From assembly GCF_964275005.1 (NCBI RefSeq), contig NC_092686.1, forward strand, positions 14,046,431-14,110,430: DNA of 64,000 nucleotides, written 5' to 3'. This document shows, one piece after another, positions 7,009-64,000 of this stretch; positions within the stretch are counted from its first letter, which is position 1, and every line of letters begins with the position of its first letter. The notes under the pieces were generated by a model. It had not been told where the DNA came from and did no database searches. It saw nothing but the letters and a program-made list of their open reading frames with translations. The DNA is from Diadema setosum (taxonomy: Eukaryota > Echinodermata > Echinoidea > Diadematoida > Diadematidae). Position numbers and translations under genes: made by a program.

Positions 7009-7594
7009 GGGGATCCATAAAAGCTTAGAACAAAATGTAAAACTGAGACCAACTATCAACTTACTGAACTTAGGGGCTGTTCATCCAAGCACCAATGTGG
7101 GTCTACTTGATTTTGGATGCTGCGGCACCAGCTCGTATAACAATTCATAAAGTTCGATCTAACGGAGTTAATTTAAGTTAATAAAGAGTGCAATTGCCCA
7201 TTCGCAATTCAGTTACGTTTACAGGGTAAAACATTCATATGATTTACGGCATTCGCGTAAAATCAACAACTATTTCCTTTCCCTTTCTTTCCCTTTGGTC
7301 AGCTCTCAATAACTGACTCAATGAACTTGGCACTGTATAAACACATGTATTCTGTGGGAAGATTTTGTTGGGTAAACGATTGAATGAAATTCGTTGAATC
7401 GTCTTGTAGTCTACAAGTTGTAGGGGTATTCAAGAAGTCTGATGTTTACACTACTGATGTTTGTACTTCATTACATACAGTATTTGTGTCAACTCGTTTT
7501 TCCAGAAATGAAATATATATTATCATTATTGACTAAAGTATTACGATAGATATTGAGAAATAAATTTTCTTTCCAGTGAATAAATGCTTTTGAG

Positions 7595-7739
7595 TGACAA
7601 ATTACCCTACATCGACGTAAATAGATCAGTGTTTCAGTAGTGGCCATGATAAAAGAAATCATGGGCGTTCGCAGGATTCGAACCTACGAGCTCCTGATCA
7701 ATTCAGTGCTTATTTACGTTGATGTAGGGCAATTTGCCA
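7595..7739 (-). repeat. Foldback element with tRNA-like loop (locus 1 intron)
   Basis: Arms related to TGACAAATTGCCCTACATCG at the left and the inverse at the right enclose a loop containing GGATTCGAACC, the reverse complement of an RNA polymerase III B box. The left arm is shorter than in the paralogous copies, lacking the AAGCACTGAATTG part. Four more copies sit at the equivalent place in loci D, E, F and G. Confidence 0.7.
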
Positions 7740-8355
7740 ATCACTTGCTCAAGTCGTGTGTGGCCACATGGTTTCTAAATGGCCTACAGTACTCACAGCC
7801 TTTTCTTTTTTCTTGGGCAATGAATTTCATTTCTCACTAAATTATTGATGGGAATATACACAAGAGAGTAAAAAGTAGTTAGAATATAGTCCTGTAGAAG
7901 TATTATAAAGGCAAGGTTATGTGGAATAAAGGATGGGTGCTATATGAAAAACAACTATATTCAGATATATAATCTTACAACAGTCAGTCACACGATATGC
8001 TCTGACAATAAGGGATTTACTAATCCCATATACAATATAGATAGCAAGAAGTGCAGTCATTGAGAACGTTTAAAGCGGATTGCCGTCGAGGACAACATTA
8101 TCTAACTGTTTTTCTAGTGAAATGCTAATGAACATAAAGATATAATTTTGGAGATTGAGAGATTATTTTCTGGCTCGTATCCACTATCTTGTAAATTTTA
8201 TTGATAATGTGAAGAGGAATAGGGGGTTTCTATGGGAATAGAAAGGAAAGAGTCATCCGCAAAAAAGGGGGAGAGAGAGAGAGCTTTCAACATAACATGT
8301 ATGAAAACCGTAGATGTAATTAATATGAAAAAATTGACATAACAGACTACCTTAA

Positions 8356-8741
8356 AGGGACTGTACAGTACTGGTTAAGGTAAGGGATTCATGTTTTGAA
8401 CATTTCTAAGTGAGATAATGAGAAACCTCATGAAATATGAAAGAGCATGTAATTTCAAGAAGAATTCAACGTTTATTTGATGAGAATTGGTTTTCAAATG
8501 GCTGAGATATCCAAAAAAGTGATAATGATAAAAGGCTACAGGCCACAACTTTATTAGGATCTCTTTGTTTCACCTTGTTTTTGGATATCTCAGCCATTTC
8601 AAAACCGATTTTCATCAAATAAACTTTTGATACCCTTTAGAATTGCATGCTCCTTGACATCTCATATATAGAGTGGTTTCTGAATATCTCGCAAAACGTT
8701 AAAAGCTAAATCCTCACCTCGACCAGAACTGTACACACCCT
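8356..8741. mobile_element. TTAA-target palindromic MITE
   Basis: The element is flanked by TTAA on both sides (8352-8355 and 8742-8745). It begins AGGGACTGTACAGTACTGG and ends with the inverse-related CCAGAACTGTACACACCCT. The middle is a further large palindrome (GGCTGAGATATCCAAAAA against TTTTTGGATATCTCAGCC). The empty site is seen in locus D near 32510, where the same flank reads ACCTTAATGG with one TTAA. The target suggests a piggyBac- or Kolobok-type source. There is no coding sequence. Confidence 0.85.
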
Positions 8742-9596
8742 TTAATGGTGTATCAAAAAAAAAATGGCATCCAAAGTGGATGCGTATTGTCAACAGTCAC
8801 AAAATATTGTCTGTTGGTTAAGTAATTCCTGGACCACTCCAAAGCATTTCAACGAGGCTGTAATGCTGTGACTTTTTTTTAGCAAGAACTCATGGTTTAT
8901 TATATCAACGGATGTGGAAAAGTTCAGATATTTACAAAATTTTCTTAAGGAAGTGGTTACCCTTTTAATAAAAGTAAGAAATGGGTGGTACTGAAAGTCA
9001 GGTTGAAGATCGATCAAAAAAAAAACAACGATTTAAGAACCAGTATTGCTCTTTAACAAAATGAAAAAAAAAGTTTAAATTGAAAACTTGGCGTATATAC
9101 AATTACATAATCTTTGTATTAGAATAACTTTTGCGATCATTGTCCAGTGGGTACCACATCAGACATGCACTCTATATGGAAAATAAATGAAACTCTGCAT
9201 GTTACAAGGTCGAATGTATGAAAGTGCAAGATGCACCTTCAAAGATGTTCAGATTGTGACACTGGTCGTAAAGGTGCAAAGTAGCACTTGGGTGTGATAT
9301 TGCTCATGATGGAATGTTGAACCAATTTTTCTGAGATTGTAAGTGACAGACTATTAGTTTATGCACAAGAGGGTTCGCAATACAATCCATTATTCTCAAT
9401 AAATGATTTCCACTACGATCATAGTCCATGCTCTTTTATCTGTTAATTTTGAAACAATATCTAATCAAATGATATTTTTTCTACAATAAAGAAAAATATG
9501 ATTTCCGGGCTTGGTATTCACAAAATATTAAAGGGATCTCTAATTTACATTCTCCTGATATCATACTGCTCATTTTCTTTATATATTACTCTCTAG

Positions 9597-12408
9597 GTGG
9601 TAAGGGTCTAGGAATTCAACGGCTGTTAGGATCATCGAGAGGCGGTAGGTGATATTATCCTCATATTTTTCTAATCATGCGTGTTGGCAGGATTTCATAC
9701 CTTGTCTACATAAAACACGCGAAAATTGCCGTTTGAAGTACTCTTCCAGAATTCCCAGATAGTGTAAGCGCTCACCATTTTACCGAGTCTCTCGGGAGTT
9801 GTGTTTCTTCTATTTTAAATCTGTATATGGACAAGTTTAGATCAATCAGAAACTCTACTATATACTAACTGAATTGTACTGACTGTATAACAAAACAAAA
9901 ACCAACTCTTGTTTCATACAATATAATCAAGTTGGTTATAGTGTAGTTGTTATTAAGAAACAATATTATTCTCTATAGTAAATACATACTTTTGAGTGAG
10001 GTAAAATACTTGAGAGCCTTTTTTTTTTGGCATTAAATGCATTTTGTAACTCAAATATCAATGGGTGTTTCCCCAAATATGTACAACTTGATGCCATAAT
10101 AATTCCATGAACTTTACTGTTTACATGAACTACAAGGAATTTAGTAAATGACAGCATTTTAATCGGAGTGTCATCAAGTACAATATTACCTGACCGTACT
10201 TTCAATTACATTGTTAAAAAAACATAAATTTAGTACTTTGCACACCAAGAGATAGCTTCCTAGGACACATCCACAAGTAGCATTATTGTAACATGAAATT
10301 AAAAAATTGAAGAATTTTGGGGTCTTCGTGAGACCGAAAAATAGAGGTATTGGCAAATACAAGGAGGAGCTTAACAGAAGACACATGGATATCGTTGACC
10401 TAAATTACAGATAGTGTAGAATGTAGCATGATAGGCTACATTGGGGTACACTACAAACAGTTGTCACGCGTAACACTTGCATAATGAATGCGTTTTATAA
10501 TAGTATAGCGAGGAGTTTTACATCTACGACGCTAATTAGAAATATGTTATTGTCTTCTGCGCCTGACACGTTCACGGCGTCGAACGCTCACTATTTTCCG
10601 CAGAATCAAACTGTTGACTCGAAATTGTTGTTTCTTTAAAAAGAGTGTTTTGCTGCGTTATGAACACATTATCCTTGCTGTCCTTTCTTCGGATTGTTAA
10701 TAAAAGTTTTATTCATCAATTCTCTGCTCTAGGTGGAAATCGTGGAGGTATTCAACGGCTTTTGGGCATTCCTGGTATTATTATTATTATTATCATATTA
10801 TTCATATATACATGCGTGCTGGAAGGTTTTCATGCATTGTCTACTTGTCAATTTCTGGTTTGAAGTATTTTTACATAATTTCCAGGGGTTTTTTGTAACC
10901 GTTTCCCTTATCTTCACCCAGATTCTTGGGAGTTTTGTTATTGCAATATCAAATGTTAACCCGTTAAAGAATTTAGTCCCGAATATACTCGGGCAGGTGG
11001 GAAAAGCGTGTTGTAGGAAGATCAGCCCGTCCTCAATGGGTTTAAGAAATAAGGGTATTATGCTCTTAATACATCATTCACAAAATCTGCTACTGCGAGT
11101 AGGGCCTTTACATGTACTACATCCCGTCACCGCCGTCATGATTTGTCACCTTCTGGTCAACTGGGGACTAAAGAGCATGAATTATTATGAAAATTACAGT
11201 GATGATAATGAAACACAAAAACGGAGAAACAAAAATCGAAAATGGTGACAGATTCATCACTATAAACACTAGGAAGGAAATGAATTGTATATTTGATGAT
11301 TCTACAATGCAACCAATAGGTAGGTATTGCACCATTTTTGATAGTGTTTTGCTGTATTGTGAATATATCCACTATCTGACTATGCTGTTCTTACTTTTGA
11401 TGATTATCAATCACATTTCACCGATTCTCTTCTCTAACTGCTCCCCCAGGTATTCGACGGCAGTGGGAATCCTCTAAAGGCAGTAGGTGATAGTATCATA
11501 TCATTTTCCTATAATACGTGTTGACTGGGGTTTTTATCCTGACTTGTGGCCAAAATTGTTGTTTGAAGTACTTTTCCACTATTTACAGATATTGCATTGA
11601 AAGCACTCTCGATATCTCTACCCTTTGGAATTAACTCCCTCTTCATATTCAGAATGCCTTATCTATTGAATAAAACTCATTTGTTCAATCAGTTGTATTT
11701 TTTTTTTTCTGGAGCCGCACACAGTTATTAATGATTGTAACACTGAATCACTGAATTTTGGTTTTGCATTGTCCAAATGTTGTTGTGTCTTCCAGTCTGT
11801 TCTGTATGAATAGCAACAGTGCGCTAGAAACACCAGTATAAAGCGCCACATAAATGTATTTATTATTATTATCATTATTAGTAGTAGTAGAAGTAGTAGT
11901 ATTACTATTATCATTATTATTAGTAGTAGTAGTAGTAGTATCACCCAGTCTATTCAGAGTTGTGCATTTTCAGGTTTTCCTATTACCTACATCAATCAGA
12001 AAATCTGCTACTGAGTTTCTAAAATGGCAAAAAGCAATACCAATTCAACGTCTATCGCACGTGAATTTGCCCTACGTCGTGCAATTGATATAGAAATGAT
12101 TTTGTCACGTGTTAATTTTCACTTAACGCACACAAGCGCTCTCACACACTTTGACAGCTTGTACACATGCACATAATTATCTTGCTACATCATCAACGAC
12201 GTTTATCTCTCATGACACCACAACGTCTTTCAATGAAAAAGAGAAGAGTGTCCGGTAACATTTCGGATCTGTCTCGTTGCCCTCCTGTTCTCTTGTAGTG
12301 CGACTGCAAGACATCATGAAACGAGAAGTGCATGATGCTCCGTAGATGTCGAAAATGCAGAATGCCGACCTCACCAAACGTGACGTCAATGGTGTGGGCA
12401 ATGACTGA
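9597..12408 (+). pseudogene. Locus 1: peptide gene relic with three different exon 3s and one exon 4
   Basis: Array DNA homologous to intron 2 of locus D starts at about 7010, but no exon 1 or 2 is present. Three exon-3 cassettes lie in series, each with an AG acceptor, phase-1 ends and a GT donor: 9597-9644 (GGKGLGIQRLLGSSRG), 10733-10774 (GGNRGGIQRLLGIPG, donor running into an ATT repeat) and 11450-11482 (GIRRQWESSKG). Exon 4 is 12299-12408; it reads VRLQDIMKREVHDAP, then a TAG at 12343-12345, so most of the acidic tail is lost, although the ancestral reading continues to TGA at 12406. AATAAA is at 12595. Without a leader it is probably dead, unless an exon 1 further left is spliced in. All three cassettes could in principle be joined in frame. 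Confidence 0.65.
11857..11944. repeat. Trinucleotide repeat (ATT/AGT)
   Basis: Runs of ATT and AGT triplets follow locus 1 exon 3c. They produce low-complexity leucine/isoleucine or valine reading frames on both strands that are not genes. Confidence 0.9.
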
Positions 12409-15260: not shown

Positions 15261-15461
15261 AGGGCATCACTGTATAGTTGTATACAGAGTTGACAGTTAG
15301 CTTTAGTAAACTTGCATTACATGTGTTAAATGAATACGGTGTCTGAATAAAACCGTGAGCTGCTCGTAGGGATCTAAAGAATCTAAATTGGCTGTTATAC
15401 CAGAAGACACGTTTTGCCGAAAAGAATTTCTGCTTACTCGCTGAGAAAAATGAAGAATTTT

Positions 15462-17463
15462 GAAAGTGTGTGTATAGTGTCAGCTCTTGGCTCTGAGTAG
15501 TCTGGCTGACGATAGATTAAGTCCTGTTACAGTGGTATAATGGTATAGATTATGAACTCCGAAGAAAAGCGGCGTTGCACAAATGTATTCCGTGAAATAA
15601 ATTGTTTATTATTGACGAAGCTCGGTACTTTCCGGCTCGTCAAAATGAAATAAAAATCAAGTAGTACAAAAAATGAACAATTCAAAGGGTTACATAAACG
15701 AACAGTATTGCTGCAAAAATTACTATCCTACCAAATCACATTGTGGCAGACATACACACAATCATGGAGTTTAAATGGTTAAATAGCACCTGGAAAAGGG
15801 GGGGGGGGGTGTGCGGATCGAGCCACCGAGTCCTTCAGTTCACTCGCGTGAAGTTCACAAAGTTGGGGTGTCCAAGGGTCTTACACGCGGGAGAGCGGAC
15901 GACGGGCAGGTGCGTCACCCTGGAGGACGAGGACGGTGAGTGGGTCCGAAGGCGGGGCTCCGAGACCTGACCAGTAACGAACGACGCCGACAGATGCCGA
16001 ATAATGACGAGTGTTTGGCGAGTGGCGTGATGCCGAGTGCCGGGATGCTGCGTGCTGAATAGCAGCTCGGGATTGATGAGTGCAGGATGTCGCGTTATAT
16101 AGCGATGCGGGCTGGACGTTTGTCGTGAGCTTTGTCGTGAGCTTTGTCATAAGCTTTGTCATAAGCCCAGCTCATCCCTGAAATAATCAAAATATCGGGT
16201 TAAGCAATTAAGGGGTAATTCTAGCGTTCATACCTTTAAACTTCCCTCTGCCATGTGTCTGCCACATTCATCTTATCAACAAAAGGTTTATACCTGTATA
16301 TATATAATCAGTTCAATTACACACTTATCTATTACAACGGATCACCATCTCAATCATACATAATTATGACTTCTATATACTGTAACTTCATAGGCCAACA
16401 TATAATAACTCGGTTAAAACAATAATTTCCTCACATTCAAACCGCCTCTTCCTGTTATTATTCTCGCTCAGAAATGATACATATATGCAACTCGAAATTA
16501 CTGCGGACGGTAATAATAATACCTCTCAGAACATCAAGTAATTACGTGTAAACAAAATTAATGGTGGTAGCTCACCATAATGTGCATTTCTTCTGCCTTG
16601 CTATAAATTAAAACCCAACCTTATCAATAATTGGGATGCAATAAGCAACGCACATCTTTCTCATATTACAACAGTTATCTTCTTTACATTATAAATATCT
16701 TCCTTCTTGGAATTCAGTTTCTATACAAAACTTGGAACATTATTATATGAAAATTGATTACACTTCTGCTCGCTGGATATTACAATTCTTCAGACTTTTC
16801 AGAAGCAGAAAATTACTTTTACTCAATTAATGCAGGCAATTAAAATTTTCCTCCACCTTGAGTTGGAGATACAAAAATACTTAACAAATTGCAATTAATA
16901 TAACTACTTACAGTTCATGAAAGGGGTGAGTCGAGCTGGGGGAAGTTGGGGGCTTCTCCTGGCCTGTGCTGCCAAAAGTTGCGCTGAAATGGGCTCCTCC
17001 TGGCCTGTGCTGCCAGAAGTCACGCTGCCTGCAAATCTGTGTTTTTGCCAGCCATGCTAAAACCACCTTGCAAATTATAGGGCGTGCCTCAGCCTCAGTG
17101 CCTTCCCAATTCCCTATAGCTACACACACATAGGAGCCTGGGTTGCAGCTCCTCAGCTCTTCATCCTTCTGCAAGGAGCTCTTGGTATCATCTGTCTACT
17201 CTCACACCCTCTCTCTCATAACTGGGCTCTCTCATACTCACTTGCATACACAAACACAAAGGATTTTGCATCCTACCCAATTAAACCCACCTGTCTGAAC
17301 TATGCTAAAACCCTGGGATATGTGTTATTGACCCGCTAGTCAGACTGGTACCTTATCCTATTCCTTATAATAATCCCTAGCTAATGTGTTCAAAATAAAG
17401 CTAAGATGTGAGCATACATGATCCTAATGCAAATGAGAGGAGAAGGGGGGGGGGGGAAACTGG
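15462..17463. mobile_element. About 2-kb insertion of unknown type inside locus A exon 1
   Basis: The insertion is inferred because the two halves of exon 1 fit the intact exons of loci B and D on either side of it. Inside there are G runs at 15799-15808 and 17446-17457, a GC-richer stretch at 15830-16110 with tandem GTGAGCTTTGTC-like words at 16122-16160, and two copies of CTCCTGGCCTGTGCTGCCA at about 16955 and 16990. No transposase, reverse transcriptase or clear inverted end is visible, so the class is open. Confidence 0.5.
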
Positions 17464-18751
17464 TCGCATTGTGACATATAGTCCTTCTGGTCGTCGGAGT
17501 TCTGTTCGCGAAGGAAAGTGGTAGATCAAATGGATTTGTAGATTTTATCGTCCCTTTTATTCCTTTCGCATAAATTCATACCTTCAGCTGTCTATCAGTG
17601 TTTTCTTTTTTTCGGAGGGGGGTGGGGGACACCCTCTGAAATATCGCCCTTGCGAAATTCCAAACAATCTACACTAGAAAGGCAATACATGTATGGTAAT
17701 AAATAGATCCATTTTGTATATAGTCTAGGCCTACTTTAGACCTCTTCTTGATGTAATCTTCTGAGAACTGAGAGTATATGTATGACCACAATGTACAGTA
17801 CGTTCGTTCCTCTTTTAACAATAACTATTTTACTTTTTCACCCTCCGTTTCAACAGATGCACACCAGGATGGTTTTGGAGGTAGGTTGTCAACTTTTACA
17901 GTGAATTTTGTTTTTGTGCATAATATATCTTAAATCTTTACCAACGCTCATAAACGTAATTCACTTATGTTACTTTGGTCTAACGTTCATGTTTCCCCAC
18001 AAAGTCTTCGATTCAAAAAGTTTTTAACTTCTTTTTCTCTAGAATTTTGCTTGCCTTTTCGTCCCCCTATTTCGTTAGTCAAACACGTAGAAACGTAAAA
18101 TGAAGGATGCTTAAAATATGCACAAGCATTTGATTTGAGTGGGTGCATGACAGTTTTCTCGTGTAATTTCTCGTGTGGTCAATGTAGCATGAAAAAAAAA
18201 AGTGAATTGGAGAACATACTAGATAAGCATATACATGTAGGATATTTGGAGATGCTGTGTTGCCAATTTGGGTAATATCACAGTGCGCATGCTCCGCGTC
18301 AAATACATGACATTTTACGACTTGGTATACATGACACGTTACCCCCTCCTAAAAAAAAAAAAAAAAATAATAATAATAATAGTAATTGATTACCTATGAT
18401 GAATATGTGCTTAGACTGATAACCATGAACGCAAATTATCAAGCAGTCATGATGTAAAGGAGTTCATTGTCATTATAAGTTGAATAAAAATCCAAATTCC
18501 GATTTTATAGGTTTCCGGTGTAATTCAGATTTTTAATTCAGAATCTATCTTCACTTCGTTTTTAGCGTTCAACACATTCTTGCTTTAAGAGTTGACGTAG
18601 ATTAATTTGTTTGTCCAAAATTCTTAACAACAAAACAGTTGACTATAATAAACGTTTATTGTTAGGATTGTTCAAATGCATAACATGCACGTTTCTTCGC
18701 TGATGCTGCTGCATGGTTGGCAGACGTTGCTGGGGACACGACCTTTTTTTA

Positions 18752-19087: not shown

Positions 19088-20283
19088 CAGTTGCAATGAA
19101 AACATCTCGACGGAAGAATTTCATGAATTTGGACACGACCTTGTTCTGCATTTTCCTGAACACTATCATAATTATGACTAAGACTAACCTGTGCTGCGTT
19201 CTAACCACAAAGACAAGAGATTACAATGTTCTCAGAAGATTACCTCGAGTTTGTGGTCGGTTACCTCATGTCTGCTAAGACGCGATGTGCCATAACTAGT
19301 AGTATTGCGTCCGAACGGACAAGAGTTAACAATGTTCTCCAGGGCCTTATTTATGAAACTTTCAATAACAAGTTCCCATAGTTGTTATAAGCTACTGAAA
19401 TCCTTGCATCTGATTGGCTGAGAGCAAATTTGTCATAGAAATTCGGCATTAACTAATGTCCATTCAGTGGCTTCGAATCAATGTGTTTTTTCGGAGATGC
19501 AGACATCGGAACTTGCTCACTTGCTCTCTACGTACCAAACATGTTGTCCTTACGTCGGATTACTGACAAAATTTGTTTATCATGATTGTTTTCATCGCGT
19601 CCCTTCTTTAGGTGCGAGTATTCTACGACCCCGATGTCCTCCGAATTGCGGTAGGTTATGGAATGTTATAATTTTATTACCCTACATACGTTAAGCCAGA
19701 ACTGCCCGCTAAAATGGTCGTTTGAATAATGTGTTTCAGATAATGATTATTCACACAGTTTAAGTGTTCCAAATTTCAACATCAATCTCGTCGGAGTTGT
19801 ATATTTATGTCATGTGGAGACTACATTAGAATACGAGGCGACTCCATGTACTATACGAAGCGAATCAAGGCATGTTGATGCAAACTGACGCTAAATTTCC
19901 CTGCATGGCGAAAATGATGTACGAAAAAAAAAATGGTGCCAAAAGTGGGAGTGCACTCTGGATGGGTGTAAAATTAATTCTCTTCCCAACCTGATGGAAG
20001 TGATGTAACAGAAACTTAACTTGGCCCCTATACTTAAAACTTCTAAACAAGCATCCACATATCAGCAGCATCTTTTTCATTATGAGACAATGTTTCTAAG
20101 CATGATGAAGCATTTCATTAAACAAACGTTTCCTAAGTCCTCAACTTTGGCTTGTCTTTGCATCTCTCTTTAGAGCCTTTACGTGACGCTACAAAACGTG
20201 AAGTGAAGGAGGCCCTACAGTTTCTCAAGATTGAGAATGCCCAACGCACCAACTATGACGTCGGTGGTATAAACGATGACTGA

Positions 20284-22879: not shown

Positions 22880-23973
22880 ATGAAGAACTTTCGACTTGCG
22901 TTTCTATTCCTTTTGGTGGTCGGAGCTCTGTTCGCAAAGGAAAGTGGTAGGTCAAATGGATTTATCGATTTTATCATCCTTTTCACCTCTATCCAATATT
23001 TGCATACTTTCACCTGTCTACTAGTTGTCCTACTTGGGAATAACATCTGAAATATTACCTTTGTGGGTAGCATGTAAGCAGTTTTGTGCACAGTGCACTA
23101 CAAATGGACTTGGGTGATTAGTAGATTTATTATTGTATAAATACCTACTTTAGAAATTTTCTTGATGTAATCTTTCGAGAACCCAGTGTTTCTCTATTCA
23201 GCACATAATGAACACTGACATATTAGTTTATTTATTATTTGCGCTCTCTTCTTCGAATAGGTGGGAGTAGAGTTCGAAGGAATCGGTGCCCTCCGTTTTG
23301 CGGTAAGGTTATGAAATGTGAAAATTCTGTTCTGGTTTCTTTATGCTTTGATTTCCTGTTTGAATTGGATTTTGAATAACGTGTTTCACATAATATCCAC
23401 ACAGTTTAAGTGTTCCCCATCTCAAAAGCAATCTCGTCGAACTTGTATATTTTTCTCTGAAATAGAAAAGTAGTTTATGTCATGTGGAAATCCCGCTAGA
23501 ATACGAGGCAACTAAGCGTGTACTGTCATACAAAGGAAATCAAGACTTGCTTGATGCAAACTGACGCTAATTTTTCCTGCAAGGCGACAATGATGTACAA
23601 TTAACATAATGGTGCCAAAAGAGAGAGTACACTCAAGATGGATGTAGCATTAATCCTCTTTCCTACATGATGGAAGTGACGTAACAAAAACGTATCAAGA
23701 TCCTTATTGAAAACCTCTAAATACGCACCTTGATATCAACAACATCCTTTTCATCATAAGACAATGTGTCGAAGCATATAAAGCGTTTCATTAGATCAGC
23801 GATATATAGATAAGTCCTCATCTTCGGCTCGTTTTTATATCCTTTCGTTAGGGCGACTGTCCGACATGTCCGACATAGCAAAACGGGATGTGAAGGAGGC
23901 TACCCAGTTCTTTGAGATGGAGAATGCCGACGGTACCAACAACCGTGACGTCGGTGATATAAACAATGACTGA
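22880..23973 (+). CDS. Locus B: secreted Cys-type peptide precursor (76 aa, three exons)
   Basis: Exon 1, 22880-22946, encodes a signal peptide (MKNFRLAFLFLLVVGALFA, then KES) and ends in phase 1 at GTAGGT. Exon 2 of the other loci is missing; the next exon is 23261-23302, GGSRVRRNRCPPFC, with a TAG acceptor and GTAAGG donor. Exon 4, 23852-23973, reads RLSDMSDIAKR, then the acidic tail DVKEATQFFEMENADGTNN and onward to TGA. AATAAA lies near 24098. I infer secretion, cleavage at KR, a basic peptide with one small C-PP-F-C loop, and an acidic tail that may neutralise it, as in antimicrobial precursors. A neuropeptide-like signal is the alternative. No known family is recognised; strongylocins, with six cysteines, differ. 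This is the only apparently intact gene of its subtype here. Confidence 0.7.
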
Positions 23974-25482: not shown

Positions 25483-25592
25483 TGCGAATGCAGAACATCG
25501 TGAAACGTGAAGTGAAGGATGCTTCAGAGGTGTCGAAGATGGAGAATGCTGACCTCACCAAACGTGATGTCAGTAATGTGGGCAATGAGTGA
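25483..25592 (+). pseudogene. Orphan exon 4 of the peptide family
   Basis: An intact exon 4 reads VRMQNIVKR, then EVKDASEVSKMENADLTKR, then DVSNVGNE and TGA, and is followed by the usual 3' flank with AATAAA near 25779. Only about seven bases of the normal upstream intron (TCTGCAG) remain before the minisatellite. With no exons 1-3 nearby, it is a truncated relic, though its acceptor and frame are preserved and it could still be used as a 3' exon by locus B. Confidence 0.8.
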
Positions 25593-44866: not shown

Positions 44867-47800
44867 CCGTGCACCTCAAAACGAACATAAAGTCGCACAC
44901 ACTGATTTTGTGTGAGGACTGAAAATAAGTGAAGTGGGTCAACCTAGCCGAACTTGACTTTTTCATATTTTCTGAAAGAGAGGGGCTTCTTTTACATTAT
45001 GTTAAAATTTGGTATCATAAAACGGGCAGGAAAGTGTGTTTTTTTTAGTAGTTTATCTCGAACATTTTTAGTAGAATAGTGTGATTAGGTGTGTCTTTAG
45101 AATCCCTTTTTCATTTCTGAAAAAACCTTGTCCACACTCTTCACTTTCAACTCTAATAACTTTTGAAAGGATAGTGCTACTGCTTTTAAAGTTGGCAATA
45201 ATTATGGACAGAATGTGTTAATGAGGCATCCTTAATTTCAGGTTAATCTGATAATCCCTTCATTGTTGTTACTATGGTGGTTTACTTCCTGTTTTTTGTC
45301 CCATTCATTGCACAGCCAGCATGGTTTGGTAAAGATTAAGCGCTTGAATAGACACTGTACTTCAGAGCCTCTATTCTCAGTTCACACTTTTCCTGAGTGT
45401 GTGCTTTCTTTCCAATATTTAGATAGGTTAGTAGAGTCCATTTGATTTGAGTTATACATCATTTTAAAGCTTAAAGTCTGCTCTTTCAGAATATGGTCTT
45501 AACTAAAAATTCATGTCTGGCGACTTTTTATTTGTTTTGAGGTGCAGGGTCACATATATATATATATTGTTGTGAAAATTATTTGCTTCAGAATGGTCTC
45601 ATATTCAAGTAATGTGCAATTTAATGTTTCTGGGTTAGCATGCCTGTACAATGATGACGGGTAATTAAACTGCACATTACTAGTACTTGAAAATGAGTCC
45701 GTTCTGAAGCAAATAATTTTCACCCATTAATAGATATATAATGTACTCTTAAATGAATCCCACAAGAATTGGAACAATCCCCCAGCATTCCCACTGATTT
45801 CCCACTGATCAGTTACTAGAAATCCCTTTAAGGAAGTGGTTACCTTTTCAATAAAGGTAAGACATGGGTGGTATTGAAAGTCAGATTGAAAATCGATCAA
45901 AAAACACCGATTTAAGAACCTATATTACTCTTTAATAAAATGAAAAAAAAAAAGTTTGAATTGAAATTGGCGTATATACAATTACATAAGCTTTTTCTTT
46001 GTATTCGAATAACTTTTGCAATCTTTGTGACACAGGGCACCACATGAGACACGCACTCTATGAAAAATACGTTAAACTTTGCATATTAAAAGGTCGGATC
46101 TATGAAAGTGCAAGTTGCACCTTCAAAGATGTTACGATTGTGGCACTGGTCGTAAAGGTGCAAAGTAGCACCCGAGTGTGACATTGGAAAAGGTGGAAAG
46201 TTGAACCAATTTTTCTTAGATTGTAAGTGACAGACTATCTATTAGTTTATGCACAAGAGGGTTCACAATACAATCCATTATTCTCTCTATATGATTTCAA
46301 CTACGATCATAATCCAGGCTCTTTTAGCTGTTATTCTTGAAACAATGTCTAATAAAACAATATTTATTCAATAATAGAAAAATATGGAGTTCGGGCTTGG
46401 CATTCGTAAAATATTAAAGGGATTTCTAATTAACATTCTCTTGATATTATACTGCTTATTTTCTTTATGTACATGTATTACTCTCTAGGTGGTAGAGGTG
46501 GTCGAGGAATTCAGCGGCTGTCAGAATCATCGCAAGGCGGTAGGTGATATTATCCTTAATTTTTTCTAATTTTTCTGTTGGCAGGTTTCATACCTTGTCT
46601 ACATAAAACATGCGAAAATTGCCGTTTGAATTAAATTTCTAGAATTCCCAGATAGTGTCAGCGCTCACCATATCTTCCCCCAGTCTGTCTAGAGTTGTGT
46701 TTCTTTCATTTTAAATCTACATATGGACAAGTTTACATCAATCAGAAACTCAAGTATATACTAACTGAACTGTACTGACTATATAGCAAGACAAGAACCG
46801 ACTCTCATTACATACAATGTAATGTTCATCGAAAGCAGATGTCATTTTGCCCTACATCGCGCAAATGATAGAGAATTTGTTTTCTTACGTGTTTACTTAA
46901 ACTTTCCCACATATCGTCGGTGTTACCACGAACCGACGCTAATTCGTTTTTGAGCGAAAATGCAATTCTGAGAAAATCGCGTTTAAAGATCTCACAAGTT
47001 TTAGACAACGTTTTCAATGACTTTTCCTGTCTTGCGTGTGAAAATTTTGACAGGGTGATGAGAGTGGAAGTTGTTCTTCCTATCCATAGTGTAATTTTAG
47101 TGTGAATTCAAAAGAATTACGATATTTCTGTCTTCAAACTCACTGCGTCGGTTCGTAAATCCATCGTTTCTTGCGCGCACCATAGGTTATGTACTTAAGC
47201 GCGGGTCTCACGAACCGACGTAAGTTGTATTACGCCGGTTCGTGAGACCCGCGCTGTAGGGCCTGCACAATAGGTAACGTGCAATACGCGTGTATTTACG
47301 AACCGTCGCTATTTCATTTTCGTATGTGTTTACATACAAATACTATTAGGGCTATACCTGCTTGTCAACAATAACCTTATTAATTGAAATTAATTGTCAT
47401 GTAATGATTATTGTGATGATTATAATACATTAGGTGATAATTAAGATGATAATATAAGCCAGTTTCTCTTAATTGTTCTAAAAGCGTGTTGTCCTTGTTT
47501 TCATCTTCATTTAGCATTGTTATTAGAGCTGTCGTTGATCGCTCCAAAGATTTTTTTGCCCTCCCCCCTCCTTTTTTGTGTGGATATATTATTCAACACT
47601 TTTGCATGTGGACATTTATCATTTGGTAATTAATATGTACTCGGTATACTGTGTTTCATATTTTTTTACTTTTTACTGTTTTTTTTATACTTTTTTAACT
47701 TACTTTCTTTATTTTTCACATAATTTTTAATTCAAATTCAGTTCACTTCTTTCATAATAATTATGAATGTTTGTTCCAAGATGAAGGATACCGCTAAATA

Positions 47801-53800: not shown

Positions 53801-54496
53801 TACCATTCACTTCACTCGTGGACAGTGGGCTGGCTTAGGCCGTCATTCATCTTTCAGAAGGTTTGGTTCTCACTCTGAGATCTGGATTAGGGCCAAAACC
53901 TAATTCTAGGCCAGTAAGTTGAACAAAGCTCAAAGTAATGCAACTGCGACGGTTCGTAAAACCCGCATTGCTCTTCACCGTAGCAATTCGGGTTTTACGA
54001 ACCGGCGTATCTTTCGTGCGTCGGTTCGTGAAACTCCTTTTTCTCAATTTCTCGATATTTCGAGTACCGTCCTTTTTTTTCTTTCTTTGATAAAATTAAG
54101 AATAATTAATTTTGTGATCTAAAATTTTGGGATTTGGTAGAGTTTTGAAAGCACTTTCATTTGGTACCAATATCTCGATTTTGAAAATTTTGACCAAAAT
54201 CGAAATAGCGTCAGTTCGTGAAAACACCGACGATATGCTCTCTCACACGCTTTAATATGCTTGTGCACACATATATATCAATGATGTCATGTCTCTCACG
54301 GCACCACATCGGCTTTCACTGAAAAGGCAAAGAGAGCCTAGTAACATTTCGGATTCTGTCTTGTTGCTCTTTTCTTGCCTCTGCAGTGCGAATGCAGGAC
54401 ATCGTGAAACGTGAAAGGAACGATGCTTCAGAGGTGTCGAAGATGGAGAATGCTGACCTCACCAAACGTGACGTCAGTGATGTGGGCAATGAGTGA
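42386..54496 (+). CDS. Locus F: secreted peptide precursor with a 7.3-kb element in intron 3
   Basis: Exons: 42386-42452 (MKDFRIACLVLLVVGSLL, then VKGS; donor GTGGGT), 42962-42985 (DAQGRGGR), 46489-46539 (GGRGGRGIQRLSESSQG) and 54387-54496 (VRMQDIVKR, then ERNDASEVSKMENADLTKR, then DVSDVGNE and TGA). AATAAA is at 54716. Its cassette is arginine-rich where D and E have glycines, and loses their KPP. The first residue after MK is Asp instead of Asn. Intron 3 is 7.8 kb instead of about 0.5 kb because of the insertion at 46915-54232, and intron 2 holds a nested TTAA element. The frame is intact, but expression would require splicing over the large insertion. Confidence 0.6.
43809..43973 (-). repeat. 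Foldback element with tRNA-like loop (locus F intron 2)
   Basis: This is the same element as in D, with the loop containing CATGGGCGTACGTACTCGAG and GGATTCGAACC. The left arm has lost the CTACAT part, so the stem is shorter. Confidence 0.72.
44864..45558. mobile_element. Nested element with GTGCACCTCAAAAC ends
   Basis: The ends are GACCGTGCACCTCAAAACGA and the inverse of GACCCTGCACCTCAAAACAA, continuing with AAAGTCGC on both sides. It lies within the TA repeat of the TTAA element. Nothing inside looks coding. Confidence 0.72.
45572..45715. mobile_element. Palindromic MITE with GTGAAAATTATTTGCTTCAG ends
   Basis: About 50-bp arms (TGAAAATTATTTGCTTCAGA, then CTCAT and TTCAAGTA) surround a short centre with GCATGCCTGTACAATGATGA. 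It is the third layer inside the locus F intron insertion. Confidence 0.75.
47199..47254. repeat. Left sub-terminal hairpin of the 7.3-kb element
   Basis: Two 25-bp arms (GCGCGGGTCTCACGAACCGA start, inverse at 47230-47254) with one mismatch and a 6-bp centre. The core GGTTCGTGAGACC is related to the element's own ends. Confidence 0.9.
47260..49500. other. Interior of the 7.3-kb element, left part; no gene
   Basis: The DNA is AT-rich without long frames. C and G runs at 48947-48960, 49140-49152 and 49193-49206 form an inverted GC-rich block like that of the hAT-like element. T-rich tracts lie at 47655-47715. Confidence 0.5.
49531..49607 (+). tRNA. tRNA-Thr(AGT)-like gene or SINE head
   Basis: A cloverleaf can be drawn: acceptor GCATCCC with GGGCTGC (one mismatch), box A GGTGGTCTAGTGG, anticodon loop CTAGTAA giving AGT (Thr), T arm GTGGG TTCGAAT CCCGC matching box B GGTTCGAATCC. 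A T run from 49613 could end RNA polymerase III transcription. The acceptor mismatch, imperfect anticodon stem and lack of a normal T8 suggest a tRNA-derived repeat rather than a working tRNA. Confidence 0.5.
50868..51945. repeat. 538-bp tandem duplication inside the 7.3-kb element
   Basis: The block starting CCATTGTATTCACAT at 50868 is repeated at 51406 with roughly 90% identity (shared pieces include AGACAGTCCAG-like, CTTCGCTACT and GATCAAAGAATGTCAAAA). It is non-coding on both strands. Confidence 0.85.
51946..53940. other. GC-richer interior of the 7.3-kb element; possible captured promoter-like DNA
   Basis: It includes CCCGGAAGTCC (an ETS-site-like word) at about 52120, many TAACGTTA and TCTAGATCTAGAC-type words (52300-53260), and a short frame beginning MAAVEIDSATVSLSIKRK at 52801 next to a GTAAAT word. 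The base composition differs from the rest of the element. It could be a captured 5' end of a host gene, but I cannot name one. Confidence 0.25.
53947..54007. repeat. Right sub-terminal hairpin of the 7.3-kb element
   Basis: Two 26-bp arms (CGACGGTTCGTAAAACCCGC start) with a 9-bp centre and few mismatches. It shares the GGTTCGT core with the left hairpin. Confidence 0.9.
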
Positions 54497-57119: not shown

Positions 57120-58539
57120 GCAAGAACTCATGGTTTATCATATCAACGGCTGTGGAAAAGTCTAGGAATGTACAAATCGGACGTAAAACAATTCCTTAAA
57201 GAAGTGGTTACCTTTTCAATAAAAGTAAGAAATGGGTGGTACTGAAAGTCAAATTGAAGATCGATCCAAAAAAAACCGATTTCAGAACCGATATTACTCT
57301 TTAACAAAATGAGAGAAAAAAAAGTTTAAATTGAAATTGACATATATACAATTACATAAGCTTTTTCTTTGTATTAGAATAACTTTTGCAATTTTTGTGG
57401 CAGAGGGCACCACATCAGACATGCACTCTACGGAAAATAAGTGAAACTTTGCATGTTAAAAGGTCGGATCTATGAAAGTGAAAGTTGCACCTTCAAAGAT
57501 GTTCCGATTGTGACAATGGTCGTGAAGGTGCAAAGTAGCGCCTGGGTGTGACATTGGTAAAGGTGGAAAGTTGAACCAATTTTTCTTAGATTGTAAGTGA
57601 CAGACTATCTGTTAGTTTATGCACAAGAGGATTTACAGAACAATCAATTATAAGTCTCACTGAAAATGATTTCCACTACGATCATAATCCATGCTCTTTT
57701 TATCTGTTAATCTTGAAACAATATCTATAATCAAACAAAATGTATTCTATAATATAGAAAAGTATGGAGTTCGGACTTGGTATTCGCAAAATATTAAAGG
57801 GATTTCTAATTTACATTCTGTTGATATCATACTATCAATTTCTAGGTGGTGGAGGTGGTCTAGGAATTCAACGGCTGTTACGACCACCGCAGGGCGGTAG
57901 GTGATATTATTCTTTAATTTCTCTAATCATGCGTGTTGGCAGGATTGCATACCTTGTCCACATAAAACATGCGAAAATTGCCGTTTGAAGTACTTCTCCA
58001 GAATTCCCAGATAGTGTAAGCGCTCACCATATCTTCCCCAGTCTGTCTGGAGTAGAGTTTCTTTCATTTTAAATCTACATAATTATGGACAAGTTTAGAT
58101 CGATCAGAAACTCTAGTATATATATACTAACTGAATTGTACTGACTATATAGGAAGACAAGATTCGACTCTCATTCCATTCAATGTAACGTTAATCGAAA
58201 ACAGATGTCATTTTGCCCTACATTGCGCAAGTGGTATAGAATTTTTTTCTTACGTGTTTAATTAAACTTTCCCACATATGCTCTCTCACACGCTTTAATA
58301 TGCTTGTGCACACATATATATCAATGATGTCATGTCTCTCACGGCACCACATCGGCTTTCACTGAAAAGGCAAATAGAGCCTAGTAACATTTCGGATTCT
58401 GTCTTGTTGCTCTTTTCTAGCTTCTGCAGTGCGAATGCAGGACATCGTGAAACGTGAAAGGAACGATGCTTCAAAGGTGCCGAAGATGGAGAATGCTGAC
58501 CTCACCAAACGTGACGTCAGTGATGTGGGCAATGAGTGA

Positions 58540-60461: not shown

Positions 60462-60470
60462 ACAAAAGGT
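60462..60470 (+). promoter_or_regulatory. Altered TATA position of locus H
   Basis: The position aligned with TATAAAAAG in D-F reads TACAAAAGG, so the TATA box is weakened. The surrounding context (GGGCTTA and GTGTACTGATAG) is otherwise conserved. Confidence 0.5.
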
Positions 60471-60626
60471 GTACTGATAGCAAATTTTCAATAGAGGTAT
60501 CTAGTAGATCACCAGGTATATGAAACCAAGAGCTACTAAGAAGGGTCCAAAGAGTCTACCGTTGCAGATAGCAGAAGACACTTGCCTGACAAAAAAGGGT
60601 TTTTGATCTATCACTCGCCGAGAAAA

Positions 60627-62792
60627 ATGAAGAACTTTCGGATTGCGTGCCTAGTCCTTCTGGTTGCCGGATCTCTGCTTGTGAAGGAAAGCGGTAGATA
60701 AAATGGATTTATTTATTTTATTTTATTTATAGTACAGAGTATATCATTTAAAGATGAATTCAAAGTTTATTTGATGAAAATCGGGTTTGGAATGACGGAA
60801 ACATGCAAAAAACAAAGTAAACTAAAGCAATCGTAATAAAGTGTGGGTGCCACACTTTATTAGAATTGTTCTCTTTTTGGATATCTCAGCCATTTTTAAA
60901 ACCTGCTTGTGAAGGAAAGCGGTAGATAGAATGGATTTATTTATTTCTAAAATCAATGTATCACTTCATAGATCGTTGTATGTGGTAATAATACCGTCAA
61001 TATAATCAGTGTAAAATTTCATATATGCGTATCAATGCAATTTTACGACACATACATTTTAATCTCCTCCAACCGTAAACAGAAAACACACACACACACA
61101 GACACACACCCTTAGGAGGTGAACTGTTTCATTGCATATTTTCATGGCATTGTACAAATAGTTTAAAGCGCGGTGTACTTCAACATCATTAAAGGGACGG
61201 TACAGTATTGGTGGAGATGAGAATTGGGCTTTTAACTTTTTGTGAGATACCAAGAAAACACTTATGATTTTTGATATAGTACAGAGCATATCATTTAAAG
61301 ATGAATTCAAAGTTTATTTGATGAAAATCGGGTTTGGAATGACGGAAACATGCAAAAAACAAAGTAAACTAAAGCAATCGTAATAAAGTGTGGGTGCCAC
61401 ACTTTATTAGAATTGTTCTCTTTTTGGATATCTCAGCCATTTTTAAAACCTGCTTGTGAAGGAAAGCGGTAGATAGAATGGATTTATTTATTTCTAAAAT
61501 CAATGTATCACTTCATACATCGTTGTATGTGGTAATAATACCGTCAATATAATCAGTGTAAAATTTCATATATGCGTATCAATGCAATTTTACGACACAT
61601 ACATTTTAATCTCCTCCAACCGTAAACAGAAAACACACACACACACAGACACACACCCTTAGGAGGTGAACTGTTTCATTGCATATTTTCATGGCATTGT
61701 ACAAATAGTTTAAAGCGCGGTGTACTTCAACATCATTAAAGGGACGGTACAGTATTGGTGGAGATGAGAATTGGGCTTTTAACTTTTTGTGAGATACCAA
61801 GAAAACACTTATGATTTTTGATATAGTACAGAGCATATCATTTAAAGATGAATTCAAAGTTTATTTGATGAAAATCGGGTTTGGAATGACGGAAACATGC
61901 AAAAAACAAAGTAAACTAAAGCAATCGTAATAAAGTGTGGGTGCCACACTTTATTAGAATTGTTCTCTTTTTGGATATCTCAGCCATTTTTAAAACCACT
62001 TTTCATCAAATAAATGTTGAATTCCTCATAGAATTACATGCTCTTTCATATTTCAGAAGAGGTTTCACATTATCTCAAAAAAAAAGTTAGATTCTAAACC
62101 TGAAATTAGGTCTCAACCAAAACTATTAAGGCACTGATTTGATTAGTTGATATTCTTTGAAGCTAGTTTTCATGTCATCATTTGAAGATTATAAAGTGTT
62201 TCTGCGATAATTGGCTTGTTACGTGGAGACTTTTCCTGTCTTAAAGGGACTGTACAGTACTGGTTGAGGTGGGGATTCATGTTTTGAACATTCCTAAGTG
62301 AGATAATATGTAGAGCCTGTTATGAAATATGAAAGAGCATGTAATTTTAAGAAGGATTCAACGTTTATTTGATGAAAATTGGTTTTCAAATGGCTGAGAT
62401 ATCCAAAAAAGTGTTAATAATAAAAGGCGACATGCCACAACTTTATTAGGATCTCTTTGTTTCACCTTGTTTTTGGATATCTCAGCCATTTCAAAACCGA
62501 TTTCCATCGAATAAACTTTTGATACCCCTTAGAACTGCATGCTCTTCGACACCTCATAGAGTGGTTTCTGAATATCTCGCAAAATTTTAAAAGCTAAATC
62601 CTCACCTCGACCAGAACTGTACACACCCTTTAATTCTGCCCGCTCGTAAGTTACATGATTCACCACTCCTCTATTTTAGCTCAGGGAATCACGACTTCGG
62701 AGAATTCTGTGAAATGTCCATTACATTCACTCCTATTCTGATATTTTGGTTCTCCTCCTTTTCGACAGATGCACAAATTGGTGGCGATGGAG
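60627..62792 (+). CDS. Locus H: peptide precursor, exons 1-2 (continues beyond the window)
   Basis: Exon 1, 60627-60693, reads MKNFRIACLVLLVAGSLL then VKES with donor GTAGAT. Exon 2, 62769-62792, reads DAQIGGDG, between CGACAG and GTAAGT, and differs from the DAQGRGGR of D-F by losing both arginines. Exons 3 and 4 would be expected from about 65.5 kb on, outside the window. Intron 1 is enlarged by a MITE and a 547-bp tandem duplication that repeats the last 19 bases of exon 1 and its donor twice more (near 60903 and 61450). An upstream open frame lies at 60520-60606. Whether H makes a peptide cannot be judged here. Confidence 0.6.
60731..62000. repeat. 547-bp tandem duplication (2.3 copies) in locus H intron 1
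   Basis: AGTACAGAG starts at 60731, 61278 and 61825, exactly 547 bp apart. The two full units appear almost identical, so the event is recent. Each unit joins half of a TTAA MITE to the exon-1 end, donor and first part of intron 1. Identical 83-residue frames on the minus strand at 61059 and 61606 are a by-product of the duplication. Confidence 0.92.
61740..62115. mobile_element. TTAA-target MITE, diverged form
   Basis: The left end AGGGACGGTACAGTATTGG follows TTAA (at 61736, and duplicated at 61189). The middle palindrome TTTTTGGATATCTCAGCC is shared with the elements at 8356 and 62245, and a TTAA lies at about 62116-62119. The right end is degraded. Confidence 0.6.
62245..62629. mobile_element. 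TTAA-target palindromic MITE, second close copy
   Basis: TTAA occurs on both sides (62241-62244 and 62630-62633). The ends AGGGACTGTACAGTACTGG and CCAGAACTGTACACACCCT are identical to those at 8356-8741. The empty site is in D at about 30810 (CTGTCTTAATTCT). Confidence 0.87.
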
Positions 62793-62880
62793 GTAAGTTA
62801 GTGTTATCAATTTTCATAGTGCATCCTTTATACACAGCAACTTCACAAACTCACTATTTAAAGTTACCATCTGAGAAAGC

Positions 62881-63020
62881 TCAGTGACGGATCTAGAGCG
62901 GATCACACCAGGCGTGCTCTTTTTTTTTTAAACAAAATAAATTTAAAAAATGGGGCGCGTGCACCCCTTTAATTTTGTAAAGGCGCCTCCCCTTTACGGA
63001 ATTCATGGATCAGCTTCTGA
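62881..63020. mobile_element. Short hAT-like MITE, uncertain
   Basis: A block beginning CAGTGACGGATCTAGAGC and containing a GGCGCGTGCACCCC/AGGCGCCTCCCC pair is present only in H, between AGAAAGCT and TTGTTACT. The start resembles hAT ends; the right end is not clear. Confidence 0.4.
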
Positions 63021-64000
63021 AGGTTGTTACTAAATGTTTTTTGCTGCGCACAAATTGAACCTTTACTTTAAAGGTCTTATTTTTCTTTTTTATTCAAATG
63101 GACTTCGACAATCTTCAAATTAGACACATACCAAGCGCAACGCGTCGGACAACATGCATGGAACTCGGACCATAGACTGTTTTCTTGTGGTTATTCTTAT
63201 GTGGACGAATGCTTATAAAATGGAGCACTTACTATTTATAAACGTATTGAACTTAAGGGCTCTTCATCCAAACACCAATGTAGGTCTATTTAATTGTGGG
63301 ATGCTGTCGCCGCTGTGGCAATACAGGTTGTACATTCTGTATAATACATTTGACAAAGTTCGATCTTACGGAGTCCATTTAAAGGCATAATTTACCATTT
63401 TCAGATGAAACAATTAGTCAGCTATAGTGTTTCAAAATAGTTCTAAAATATGAGCTCGGGATAAAGACAACCAATGTGACAAATTTGAATCAGTATAACT
63501 AAAGTGAAGTATTGTTATATATACAAAATATGAACATAATTATGAAAATAGTTCTGGACTGCCTAACTAAAGTTGTGATTTAGTAAGAAAATAATAATAT
63601 CACTTTTTTTTTTCATTTTTATAAATCACCGATTTCAATCTTAACAGGACCTAATTAAGAGTGCAAAAGTCCAGTTTGCTGTTTATTTATGTTTTCATAG
63701 TAAAGCATTCATATGATTTCCGGCATAATACGTACTTCAGTAAATTCATTGACCAGTTTCTTTCTCTTCCCTTCCTTTTGGTCAGCTTTCAATGATTGAC
63801 TCCATAAACTTGGTACTGTATAAGCGCATGCATTCTGTTGGAAAATTGTGCTGGGTAAGGGATTTAATGAAATTCGCTAGATCGTCCTGTAGGGTATTTA
63901 TGAAGACTGATGTTTGCTCTACTGATGCTTGTACAAATACTTCAACAAATGTTTGTATCAACTCGTTTTTTCCAGAAATCAGATATGAATTATCTTAATG
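63021..64000. other. Intron 2 of locus H up to window end
   Basis: It matches intron 2 of D-F in blocks (CACCAATGTAGGTCTATTTAA, CATATGATTTCCGGCAT, GATTGACTCCATAAACTTGG) but is more diverged. No exon is seen. Confidence 0.6.

What the first reader, a model, noticed from the sequence alone, without database searches (positions are those of the whole stretch)
7010..64000. Tandem family of four-mini-exon secreted peptide genes, apparently undescribed
Eight loci plus an orphan exon share one architecture: a 67-nt signal exon, a 24-nt exon, a 33-51-nt cassette and a 110-122-nt KR/acidic exon, all joined in phase 1 with good GT/AG sites and an AATAAA. Seen directly: the repeated exons and splice sites. 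Known: antimicrobial and neuropeptide precursors use a signal, a basic peptide, a dibasic site and an acidic pro-part. Inferred: an amplified defence-peptide family. Exons this small are easily missed by gene finders.
Basis: partly seen in the sequence, partly recalled or inferred. Interest (0 to 1): 0.9.

Follow-up and report, generated by a model that had tools for sequence, protein, structure and literature searches.

The report
Sea-urchin cluster of mini-exon peptide genes
A sea urchin carries, at one spot on one chromosome, about two dozen related copies of a tiny-exon gene that appears to encode short, fast-changing secreted peptides, most likely host-defence peptides of a kind we could not find described.

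Summary
The window lies in a 912.7-Mb genome whose mitochondrial COI is echinoid-like and needs the echinoderm code. Eight loci plus an orphan exon 4 lie in the window. They belong to a same-strand array on contig C2, about 13.92-14.26 Mb; three genome searches found no copy elsewhere (lower bounds). I followed 25 loci: 15 give an intact spliced ORF, one stops early after the KR site, nine are broken, incomplete or unresolved. The signal exon is conserved (omega 0.50, below 1 at about p 0.003). Exon 4 is weakly constrained (0.67), and not in the youngest clade. The Gly cassette, part of the would-be mature peptide, shows no constraint (2.6, not significantly above 1). Several genes carry two or three homologous cassettes that nearly always stay in frame in any combination.

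Best reading: precursors with a signal peptide, a 23-42-aa mostly cationic peptide, KR and an acidic tail, probably a defence-peptide family. Expression, processing and activity are untested. No Pfam family above cut-off and no paper was found. It fails defining features of centrocins, strongylocins and SpTrf (the last recalled).

The parts
9597..9644 (+). locus g05, cassette exon 3a (GGKGLGIQRLLGSSRG); exons 1-2 lie upstream of the window (exon 1 at G000:C2:14041653)
10733..10774 (+). locus g05, cassette exon 3b (GGNRGGIQRLLGIP), weak donor gtatta
11450..11482 (+). locus g05, cassette exon 3c (GIRRQWESSKG)
12299..12345 (+). locus g05, exon 4 with premature stop soon after the KR site
15450..15477 (+). 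locus g06, 5' part of exon 1, interrupted by a 1,999-base insertion (15478-17476)
17477..17520 (+). locus g06, 3' part of exon 1 after the insertion (the first five bases are the repeated target TATAG)
17857..17880 (+). locus g06, exon 2 (24 nt)
19612..19650 (+). locus g06, Cys-type cassette (GASILRPRCPPNC)
20174..20283 (+). locus g06, exon 4
22880..22946 (+). locus g07, exon 1 (signal peptide MKNFRLAFLFLLVVGALFAKES)
23261..23302 (+). locus g07, Cys-type cassette (GGSRVRRNRCPPFC); no exon 2 found
23852..23973 (+). locus g07, exon 4 (122 nt, KR, acidic tail, stop)
25483..25592 (+). g08, orphan exon 4, open, with a cag acceptor; preceded by short tandem repeats
30361..30427 (+). locus g09, exon 1
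30947..30970 (+). locus g09, exon 2 (DAQGRGGR)
33682..33732 (+). locus g09, Gly-type cassette (GGGGGLGIHRLLKPPQG)
34263..34372 (+). locus g09, exon 4
36399..36465 (+). locus g10, exon 1
37015..37038 (+). locus g10, exon 2
39442..39492 (+). locus g10, Gly-type cassette
40020..40129 (+). locus g10, exon 4
42386..42452 (+). locus g11, exon 1
42962..42985 (+). locus g11, exon 2
46489..46539 (+). locus g11, Gly-type cassette (GGRGGRGIQRLSESSQG)
54387..54496 (+). locus g11, exon 4, assigned across an intron that carries about 7.3 kb of extra sequence
57846..57896 (+). g13, Gly-type cassette of a copy that lacks exons 1-2
58430..58539 (+). g13, exon 4
60627..60693 (+). locus g14, exon 1
62769..62792 (+). 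locus g14, exon 2; its cassettes and exon 4 lie past the window end (G000:C2 14115712-14117149)

Best explanation
This is a tandem array of genes for short secreted peptide precursors in a sea urchin. Each gene runs from a TATA-like promoter through a 67-nt signal-peptide exon, usually a tiny exon encoding DAQ..., one to three homologous cassette exons (cores like GIQRLL..., ILRHPPKG, ILRPRCPPNC), and a last exon encoding a short link, a Lys-Arg site and an acidic tail. Shown: exon structure, frame preservation, conserved signal and KR, variable cassette, single-locus amplification with decay of some copies. Inferred: after the signal is removed (possibly at SDA|Q, giving an N-terminal pyroglutamate), a furin/PC-type protease cuts at KR and frees a 23-42-aa peptide (one- or two-cassette forms), mostly cationic, rich in Gly/Arg or Pro/Arg, or with a CPPxC ring. 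The acidic tail keeps the precursor nearer neutral. The peptides act outside the cell, most likely as antimicrobial or other host-defence peptides; copy amplification and fast cassette change widen the repertoire. In multi-cassette genes alternative splicing could give several peptides per gene; this step is the least supported.
For: Confined to one locus as far as searched: exon-1 DNA 17 matches, exon-4 DNA 17 and exon-4 peptide 25 at E <= 1, all on C2 and all on the + strand (the tool calls its counts lower bounds). Coding: 15 of 25 loci give an intact spliced ORF (g04 only if its third exon, out of frame, is skipped), and g05 one truncated after KR. In the 15 exon-1 copies aligned there are 0 gap events against 47 in the 150-nt flanks; g19, not among them, lacks one whole codon. 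Divergence over all copies in exon 1 is 0.155 against 0.246 and 0.328 in its flanks, in exon 4 0.237 against 0.367 and 0.341. Exon-1 omega is 0.50, lnL -500.01 against -504.56 at omega 1, and pN/pS is 0.45 in frame against 0.86 and 1.19 out of frame. Exons 1+4 of 13 loci: omega 0.66, lnL -1116.67 against -1119.82. KR is invariant in 7 of 7 exon-4 types aligned; across the 18 it is KR in 17 and RR in one. A TATA-like block lies upstream of exon 1, 162 bases before ATG in g09 and 182 in g07. AATAAA follows 20 of 20 exon-4 copies. Variable mature part: in eight Gly cassettes changes at codon positions 1+2 run at 0.56 per site against 0.40 in introns (not significant). Charge: in 11 typed precursors the predicted mature part is 0 to +5 (0 to +6 after correcting one typing slip) and the tail -1 to -6. 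Conserved pre-region with diverse active chain is what PMC4805251 reports for centrocins (passages seen).
Against: No RNA, peptide or activity data could be reached. One Cys-type product (g16) has net charge 0 and g01 only +1, so not all are typical cationic AMPs. Exon 4's coding signal is weak: the frame control fails, omega is 1.07 in six young copies, and in five young copies exon 4 differs more (0.075) than the intron before it (0.027), though not more than the stretch after it (0.084). The cassette excess over neutrality is not significant (lnL -171.97 against -173.62), and its per-site difference (0.126) lies between its flanks (0.148, 0.088). Six of 46 donors other than 3b also score low, -0.5 to 1.1. 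Nine of 25 loci are broken, incomplete or unresolved. No relative in another species could be tested. Signal-peptide cleavage was judged by eye.
Confidence: 0.6

Rival explanations
1. The genes are real secreted-peptide genes but the peptides signal rather than kill: neuropeptides, peptide hormones or reproductive (egg/sperm) peptides.
For: Same precursor layout as neuropeptides: signal, short peptide, dibasic KR. CG-R in g07 and g17 could give a C-terminal amide; DAQ could give pyroglutamate. Sea urchins use many peptide signals, including egg-jelly sperm-activating peptides (recalled).
Against: About two dozen tandem copies whose Gly cassette changes freely (omega not below 1) is unlike a receptor ligand. 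Each single-cassette precursor holds one candidate peptide, not many copies of it. No consistent amidation motif: copies read ...VRMQ......VRLQ......MRLQ......GRLSD......RKLSD... or ...EPLRD... after the cassette. Papers on echinoderm neuropeptide precursors were listed (12 of 45) but only titles and abstract starts were seen.
Confidence: 0.2
2. The peptides are a chemical defence or venom-like secretion (epidermis, pedicellariae, spines), aimed at predators or parasites rather than microbes.
For: Fast-evolving cassettes under a conserved signal exon in a tandem array is also a usual pattern of venom and allomone peptides (recalled).
Against: No cysteine framework in most copies; only the CPPxC type has two Cys. 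No expression data.
Confidence: 0.12
3. A decaying or non-coding repeat array: the copies look alike because they were duplicated recently, and the frame is incidental.
For: Nine of the 25 loci followed are broken, incomplete or unresolved, and a tenth (g05) is truncated. The exon-4 frame control does not separate. Gly cassettes show no purifying selection.
Against: 0 gap events in exon 1 and 3 in exon 4 against 47 and 46 in flanks (15 and 14 copies); exon-1 omega below 1; divergent clades still share splice sites, KR, stop and AATAAA.
Confidence: 0.05

Closest known systems
Centrocins (SdCentrocin, EeCentrocin; sea-urchin heterodimeric antimicrobial peptides)
   Same: Sea urchin, short precursor with conserved pre-region and diverse active chain (PMC4805251, passages).
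   Different: EeCentrocins have a 20-aa signal, a 30-aa prosequence before the heavy chain, a 24-aa interchain and a light chain, with a disulphide between chains and brominated Trp (same passages). Here the candidate peptide follows the signal or a 4-9-codon exon directly, the acidic part is C-terminal, and most assembled copies have no Cys outside the signal.
Strongylocins (cysteine-rich sea-urchin antimicrobial peptides)
   Same: Small secreted peptides of sea urchins.
   Different: EeStrongylocin 2 has six Cys in three disulphides and a prosequence before the mature peptide (PMC4805251, passages); here none or two Cys in the assembled precursors.
SpTransformer / Sp185/333 gene family
   Same: Echinoid immune effector family with great sequence diversity (abstract starts); tandem and partly Gly-rich (recalled).
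   Different: SpTrf genes have two exons with the whole mature protein in the second and far longer proteins (recalled); here mature peptides of 23-42 aa are spread over mini-exons.
Pea-aphid cassette effector families KQY and KHI (miniature exons)
   Same: Conserved signal region joined to divergent sequence built from mini-exons, in a multigene family, with alternative splicing (PMC7495047, passages).
   Different: Aphid salivary proteins of 100-450 aa; KQY1a has 37 exons. No dibasic site or acidic tail was mentioned in the passages seen; no sequence relation was tested.
Linear Gly- or Pro/Arg-rich antimicrobial peptides such as apidaecins (recalled)
   Same: Compositional likeness of products such as QGPKRPPGRSGILRHPPKG (g18).
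   Different: No homology tested or claimed; no Pfam family above cut-off in four precursors.

Membership tests
Centrocins | prosequence between signal and active heavy chain | tested here: not met
   cassette follows the signal exon or an exon of 4-9 codons; centrocin layout from PMC4805251 passages
Centrocins | one Cys in each of two chains forming a heterodimer | tested here: not met
   of the 14 loci with ORFs, three (g07, g16, g17) have two Cys outside the signal, both within five residues of each other, and 11 have none; g19 and g24 have none
Centrocins | recognisable sequence match | tested here: inconclusive
   EeCentrocin 1 heavy chain gave 0 matches in this genome at E <= 1; a query of only 30 aa with no positive control, and it was not compared with the family directly
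Strongylocins | six cysteines in three disulphides | tested here: not met
   0 or 2 Cys outside the signal in each assembled precursor; the unassembled g21 cassette has one
SpTransformer (Sp185/333) | two-exon gene with the mature protein in exon 2 | tested here: not met
   three to six coding exons per gene here; the SpTrf layout is recalled
Secreted peptide precursor with dibasic processing | N-terminal signal peptide | tested here: inconclusive
   n-, h- and c-regions evident by eye and exon conserved, but no signal-peptide predictor was available
Secreted peptide precursor with dibasic processing | conserved dibasic site | tested here: met
   KR at the same place in 7 of 7 exon-4 types aligned and in 17 of 18 (one reads RR)
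Antimicrobial peptides | kills or inhibits microbes | not testable with these tools
   needs synthesis and assay
Antimicrobial peptides | cationic mature peptide | tested here: inconclusive
   net charge 0 to +5 in 11 typed precursors; one is 0 and one is +1
Known protein family (Pfam) | score above a family cut-off | tested here: not met
   0 families for 3 of 4 precursors; one hit of 12.2 bits against a cut-off of 30 for the fourth

The most novel reading that the evidence does not exclude
An echinoid defence-peptide system that builds its repertoire from interchangeable phase-1 cassette mini-exons: tandem genes with one to three homologous cassettes, each able to join the same signal and KR/acidic exons in frame, so that gene duplication, cassette duplication and splicing together give many peptides from one locus.
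Probability: 0.2. Interest if true: 0.75.

Novelty: new variant of a known kind. Interest (0 to 1): 0.5.

Why it matters
Sea-urchin immunity is known for huge receptor and SpTrf repertoires, but its short-peptide arm is represented by few families (recalled, and the reviews listed). A single-locus, fast-evolving family of about 25 peptide loci built from exons of 12-122 nt would add a new candidate effector family. Exons this small are easily missed in annotation, and the exact coordinates can be tested at once against existing urchin RNA-seq. If the cassette exons are spliced alternatively, it would be an unusual route to peptide diversity in an animal without adaptive immunity.

Tried and rejected
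Considered and rejected: membership in centrocins, strongylocins or SpTrf (see membership test); non-coding repeat array. Solved-structure search by sequence, one precursor only, gave 4 weak matches, best E 0.14, taken as chance. The text search for six family peptides found 0 papers. A centrocin heavy-chain search of the genome found nothing. Family searches of the genome for COI, bindin and 18S rRNA models did not complete, so the phylum rests on the COI protein. The longest ORFs over the 264 kb look by eye like mobile-element proteins (listing only, no family search), so no flanking host gene was identified. Species not identified.

Rows left out: exon assembly used 16 chosen loci; g00, g06, g08, g19-g22, g24 and g25 were not in it (g00, g19, g20, g24 and g25 were read, g06 and g08; g21 and g22 were not assembled). 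Two further exon-4-like places (G000:C2 near 14201573 and 13935946) were not counted among the 25 loci. Omega for exon 1 used 20 copies (g19 left out, it lacks one codon). Omega for exon 4 used 18 copies; g04, g05, g15, g19, g20, g22 and g25 were left out as shortened, truncated or broken. One search used 11 typed precursors. Two have a one-residue slip at a junction: g01 has D for Y outside the mature part, and g23 has G for R, so its charge is +6, not +5. The two-cassette string scanned lacks one G. In one search the third cassette of g02 was not resolved. The donor-site weights are recalled general values.
Full report
WHERE IT IS. The window is G000:C2:14046431-14110430 of a 912,680,840-base genome in 102 contigs. 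A sea-urchin COI protein recalled from memory matches contig C102 (15,708 bases) at 94% over 328 residues with seven TGA codons; read with table 9 it is an open echinoid-like COI. I take the organism to be a sea urchin; the species is not identified.

OBSERVATION. Self-comparison shows long direct repeats spread over the window with segments in the same order. Exon profiles searched over 264 kb (ten 10-kb stretches on each side of the window, cut-off E 2) found 22 exon-1 matches, 16 exon-2, 28 cassette and 25 exon-4 matches, all on the + strand. Of the 22 exon-1 matches 18 are whole, two are the halves of one split exon and two are fragments. Four more short stretches added three whole exon 1 and further exon-4 copies; the few - strand matches there have E 0.18 or worse. 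Genome-wide, exon-1 DNA gave 17 matches, exon-4 DNA 17, and an exon-4 peptide 25 at E <= 1 (best 4.6e-13, worst 0.13), all on C2 between 13.92 and 14.26 Mb and all on the + strand. The tool warns that its counts are lower bounds. As far as searched, the family is one tandem locus of some 340 kb.

GENE STRUCTURE. Exon 1 is 67 nt (64 in g19) and encodes a peptide like MKNFGLAFLVLLVVGALFVKES; exon 2 is 12-27 nt and encodes DAQ... or DAH...; cassettes are 33-51 nt; exon 4 is 104-122 nt in intact copies. The internal exons assembled are multiples of three with phase-1 ends, so subsets splice in frame; the exception is the second cassette of g04, 44 nt. Of 16 loci assembled, 14 give at least one open spliced frame; one of these (g05) stops soon after KR, and g13 and g15 are incomplete. 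Loci g19 and g24 are also intact, so 15 intact and one truncated among the 25 loci I followed (g00-g11, g13-g25). Decay is of several kinds: insertion in exon 1 (g06), loss of exons 1-2 (g13), lone exon 4 (g08), lost acceptor (g15 exon 4; g20 exon 2), altered end of exon 4 (g25).

CASSETTES. Three cassette classes recur: Gly-type (GGGGGLGIQRLLGPPQG), an Arg/Pro type (GRSGILRHPPK, GGAGVLQRRISPKG, GGRTGIMRPPPSG), and a Cys type (GGSRVRRNRCPPFC, GASSRRRQCPPLC, GASILRPRCPPNC). By eye many share a core like GI-[LQ]-R. In one search genes g01, g02, g04 and g14 have two cassettes and g05 and g15 three; g02 may have a third that one search did not resolve, and g25 has two. Cassette 3b has poor donor sites in six of six copies, -5.8 to -1.4; of the 46 other donors scored, 40 lie at 2.4 to 8.8 and six at -0.5 to 1.1; the 95th percentile of background GT is 1.3. 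So 3b may be skipped or dying.

SELECTION. Exon 1: pN/pS 0.45 over 190 pairs, against 0.86 and 1.19 in the wrong frames; omega 0.50, lnL -500.01 against -504.56 at omega 1 with the best kappa on a grid, about p 0.003. Exon 4: pN/pS 0.71 in frame and 0.70 and 0.82 out of frame for 15 equal-length copies, so this control does not separate; omega 0.67 over 18 copies, lnL -901.73 against -903.99, about p 0.03. Exons 1+4 of 13 loci: omega 0.66, lnL -1116.67 against -1119.82, about p 0.01. In six young copies exon-4 omega is 1.07. Gly cassette, eight copies: omega 2.6, lnL -171.97 against -173.62, about p 0.07, not significant; changes per site 0.56 at codon positions 1+2, 0.44 at position 3, 0.40 in introns, no significant difference. 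Trees were re-used for the fixed-omega runs, gene conversion was not modelled, and p values are from a one-degree chi-square worked by hand.

DIVERGENCE AND GAPS. Over all aligned copies exon 1 differs by 0.155 (flanks 0.246, 0.328) and exon 4 by 0.237 (flanks 0.367, 0.341). Exon 2 differs by 0.241 (0.275, 0.341) but has more gap cells (0.224) than its flanks (0.113, 0.112). The Gly cassette differs by 0.126 (0.148, 0.088). In the young clade exon 4 differs by 0.075 (0.027, 0.084) and exon 1 by 0.037 (0.051, 0.120). Exon 1 has 0 gap events against 47 in 150-nt flanks (15 copies; g19 with its missing codon not among them), exon 4 has 3 (lengths 1, 3, 6) against 46 (14 copies). The picture is a constrained signal, a weakly constrained tail and an unconstrained or diversifying cassette.

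TRANSCRIPTION SIGNALS. The 280 bases upstream align across 18 copies with conserved blocks that include a TATA-like stretch, weaker in the distant copies; it lies 162 bases before ATG in g09 and 182 in g07. AATAAA follows 20 of 20 exon-4 copies examined, 14 of them as CAATAAA.

PRODUCTS. If the signal is cut at SDA|Q and the chain at KR, the N-terminal product is 23-42 aa with charge 0 to +5 (+6 after correcting g23) and the tail -1 to -6 in 11 precursors. Two precursors (g07, g17) place CGR after the CPPxC ring, which could be an amidation signal. These cuts are inferred.

WHAT IS KNOWN. Pfam: no family above cut-off in four precursors. PDB sequences, one precursor: best E 0.14. Seven literature searches brought up centrocins, strongylocins, SpTrf and echinoderm neuropeptides, not this family; only search listings and abstract starts were seen, except passages of PMC4805251 and PMC7495047. 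Subscription papers, preprints and gene annotations of urchin genomes could not be searched, so 'undescribed' is provisional.

CONCLUSION. A real family of small secreted-peptide genes; most likely host defence (0.6), with signalling or chemical defence as live rivals. The novelty lies in the family and in the cassette mini-exon build, not in the general plan of signal, peptide, KR and acidic part, which is common.

Noticed in passing
15478-17476: A 1,999-base insertion splits exon 1 of locus g06; it begins TG, ends CA and is flanked by a repeated TATAG, like a solo LTR (judged by eye).
   Followed up: partly
1176-5245, - strand: Long ORFs that look by eye like a non-LTR retrotransposon (endonuclease and reverse transcriptase) lie in what would be the long intron of locus g05 (no family search run).
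   Followed up: no
60720-62113: A 547-base unit in tandem (98% between the first two copies) carries fragments of the end of exon 1 at 60902 and 61449.
   Followed up: no
18071-18112 and G000:C2 near 14138401: Short, weak exon-4-like relics (E 0.03 and 0.0015) lie inside loci g06 and g18, upstream of their cassettes.
   Followed up: no
28742-29661 and 26545-27317: Tandem repeats of 157-base and 217-base units.
   Followed up: no
49533-49605, + strand: A lone tRNA match (Rfam RF00005, 43.1 bits) inside the extra sequence in the third intron of locus g11.
   Followed up: no
G000:C2:14255025-14255126: The outermost weak exon-4-like match (E 0.13, one stop) may mark the far end of the array.
   Followed up: no
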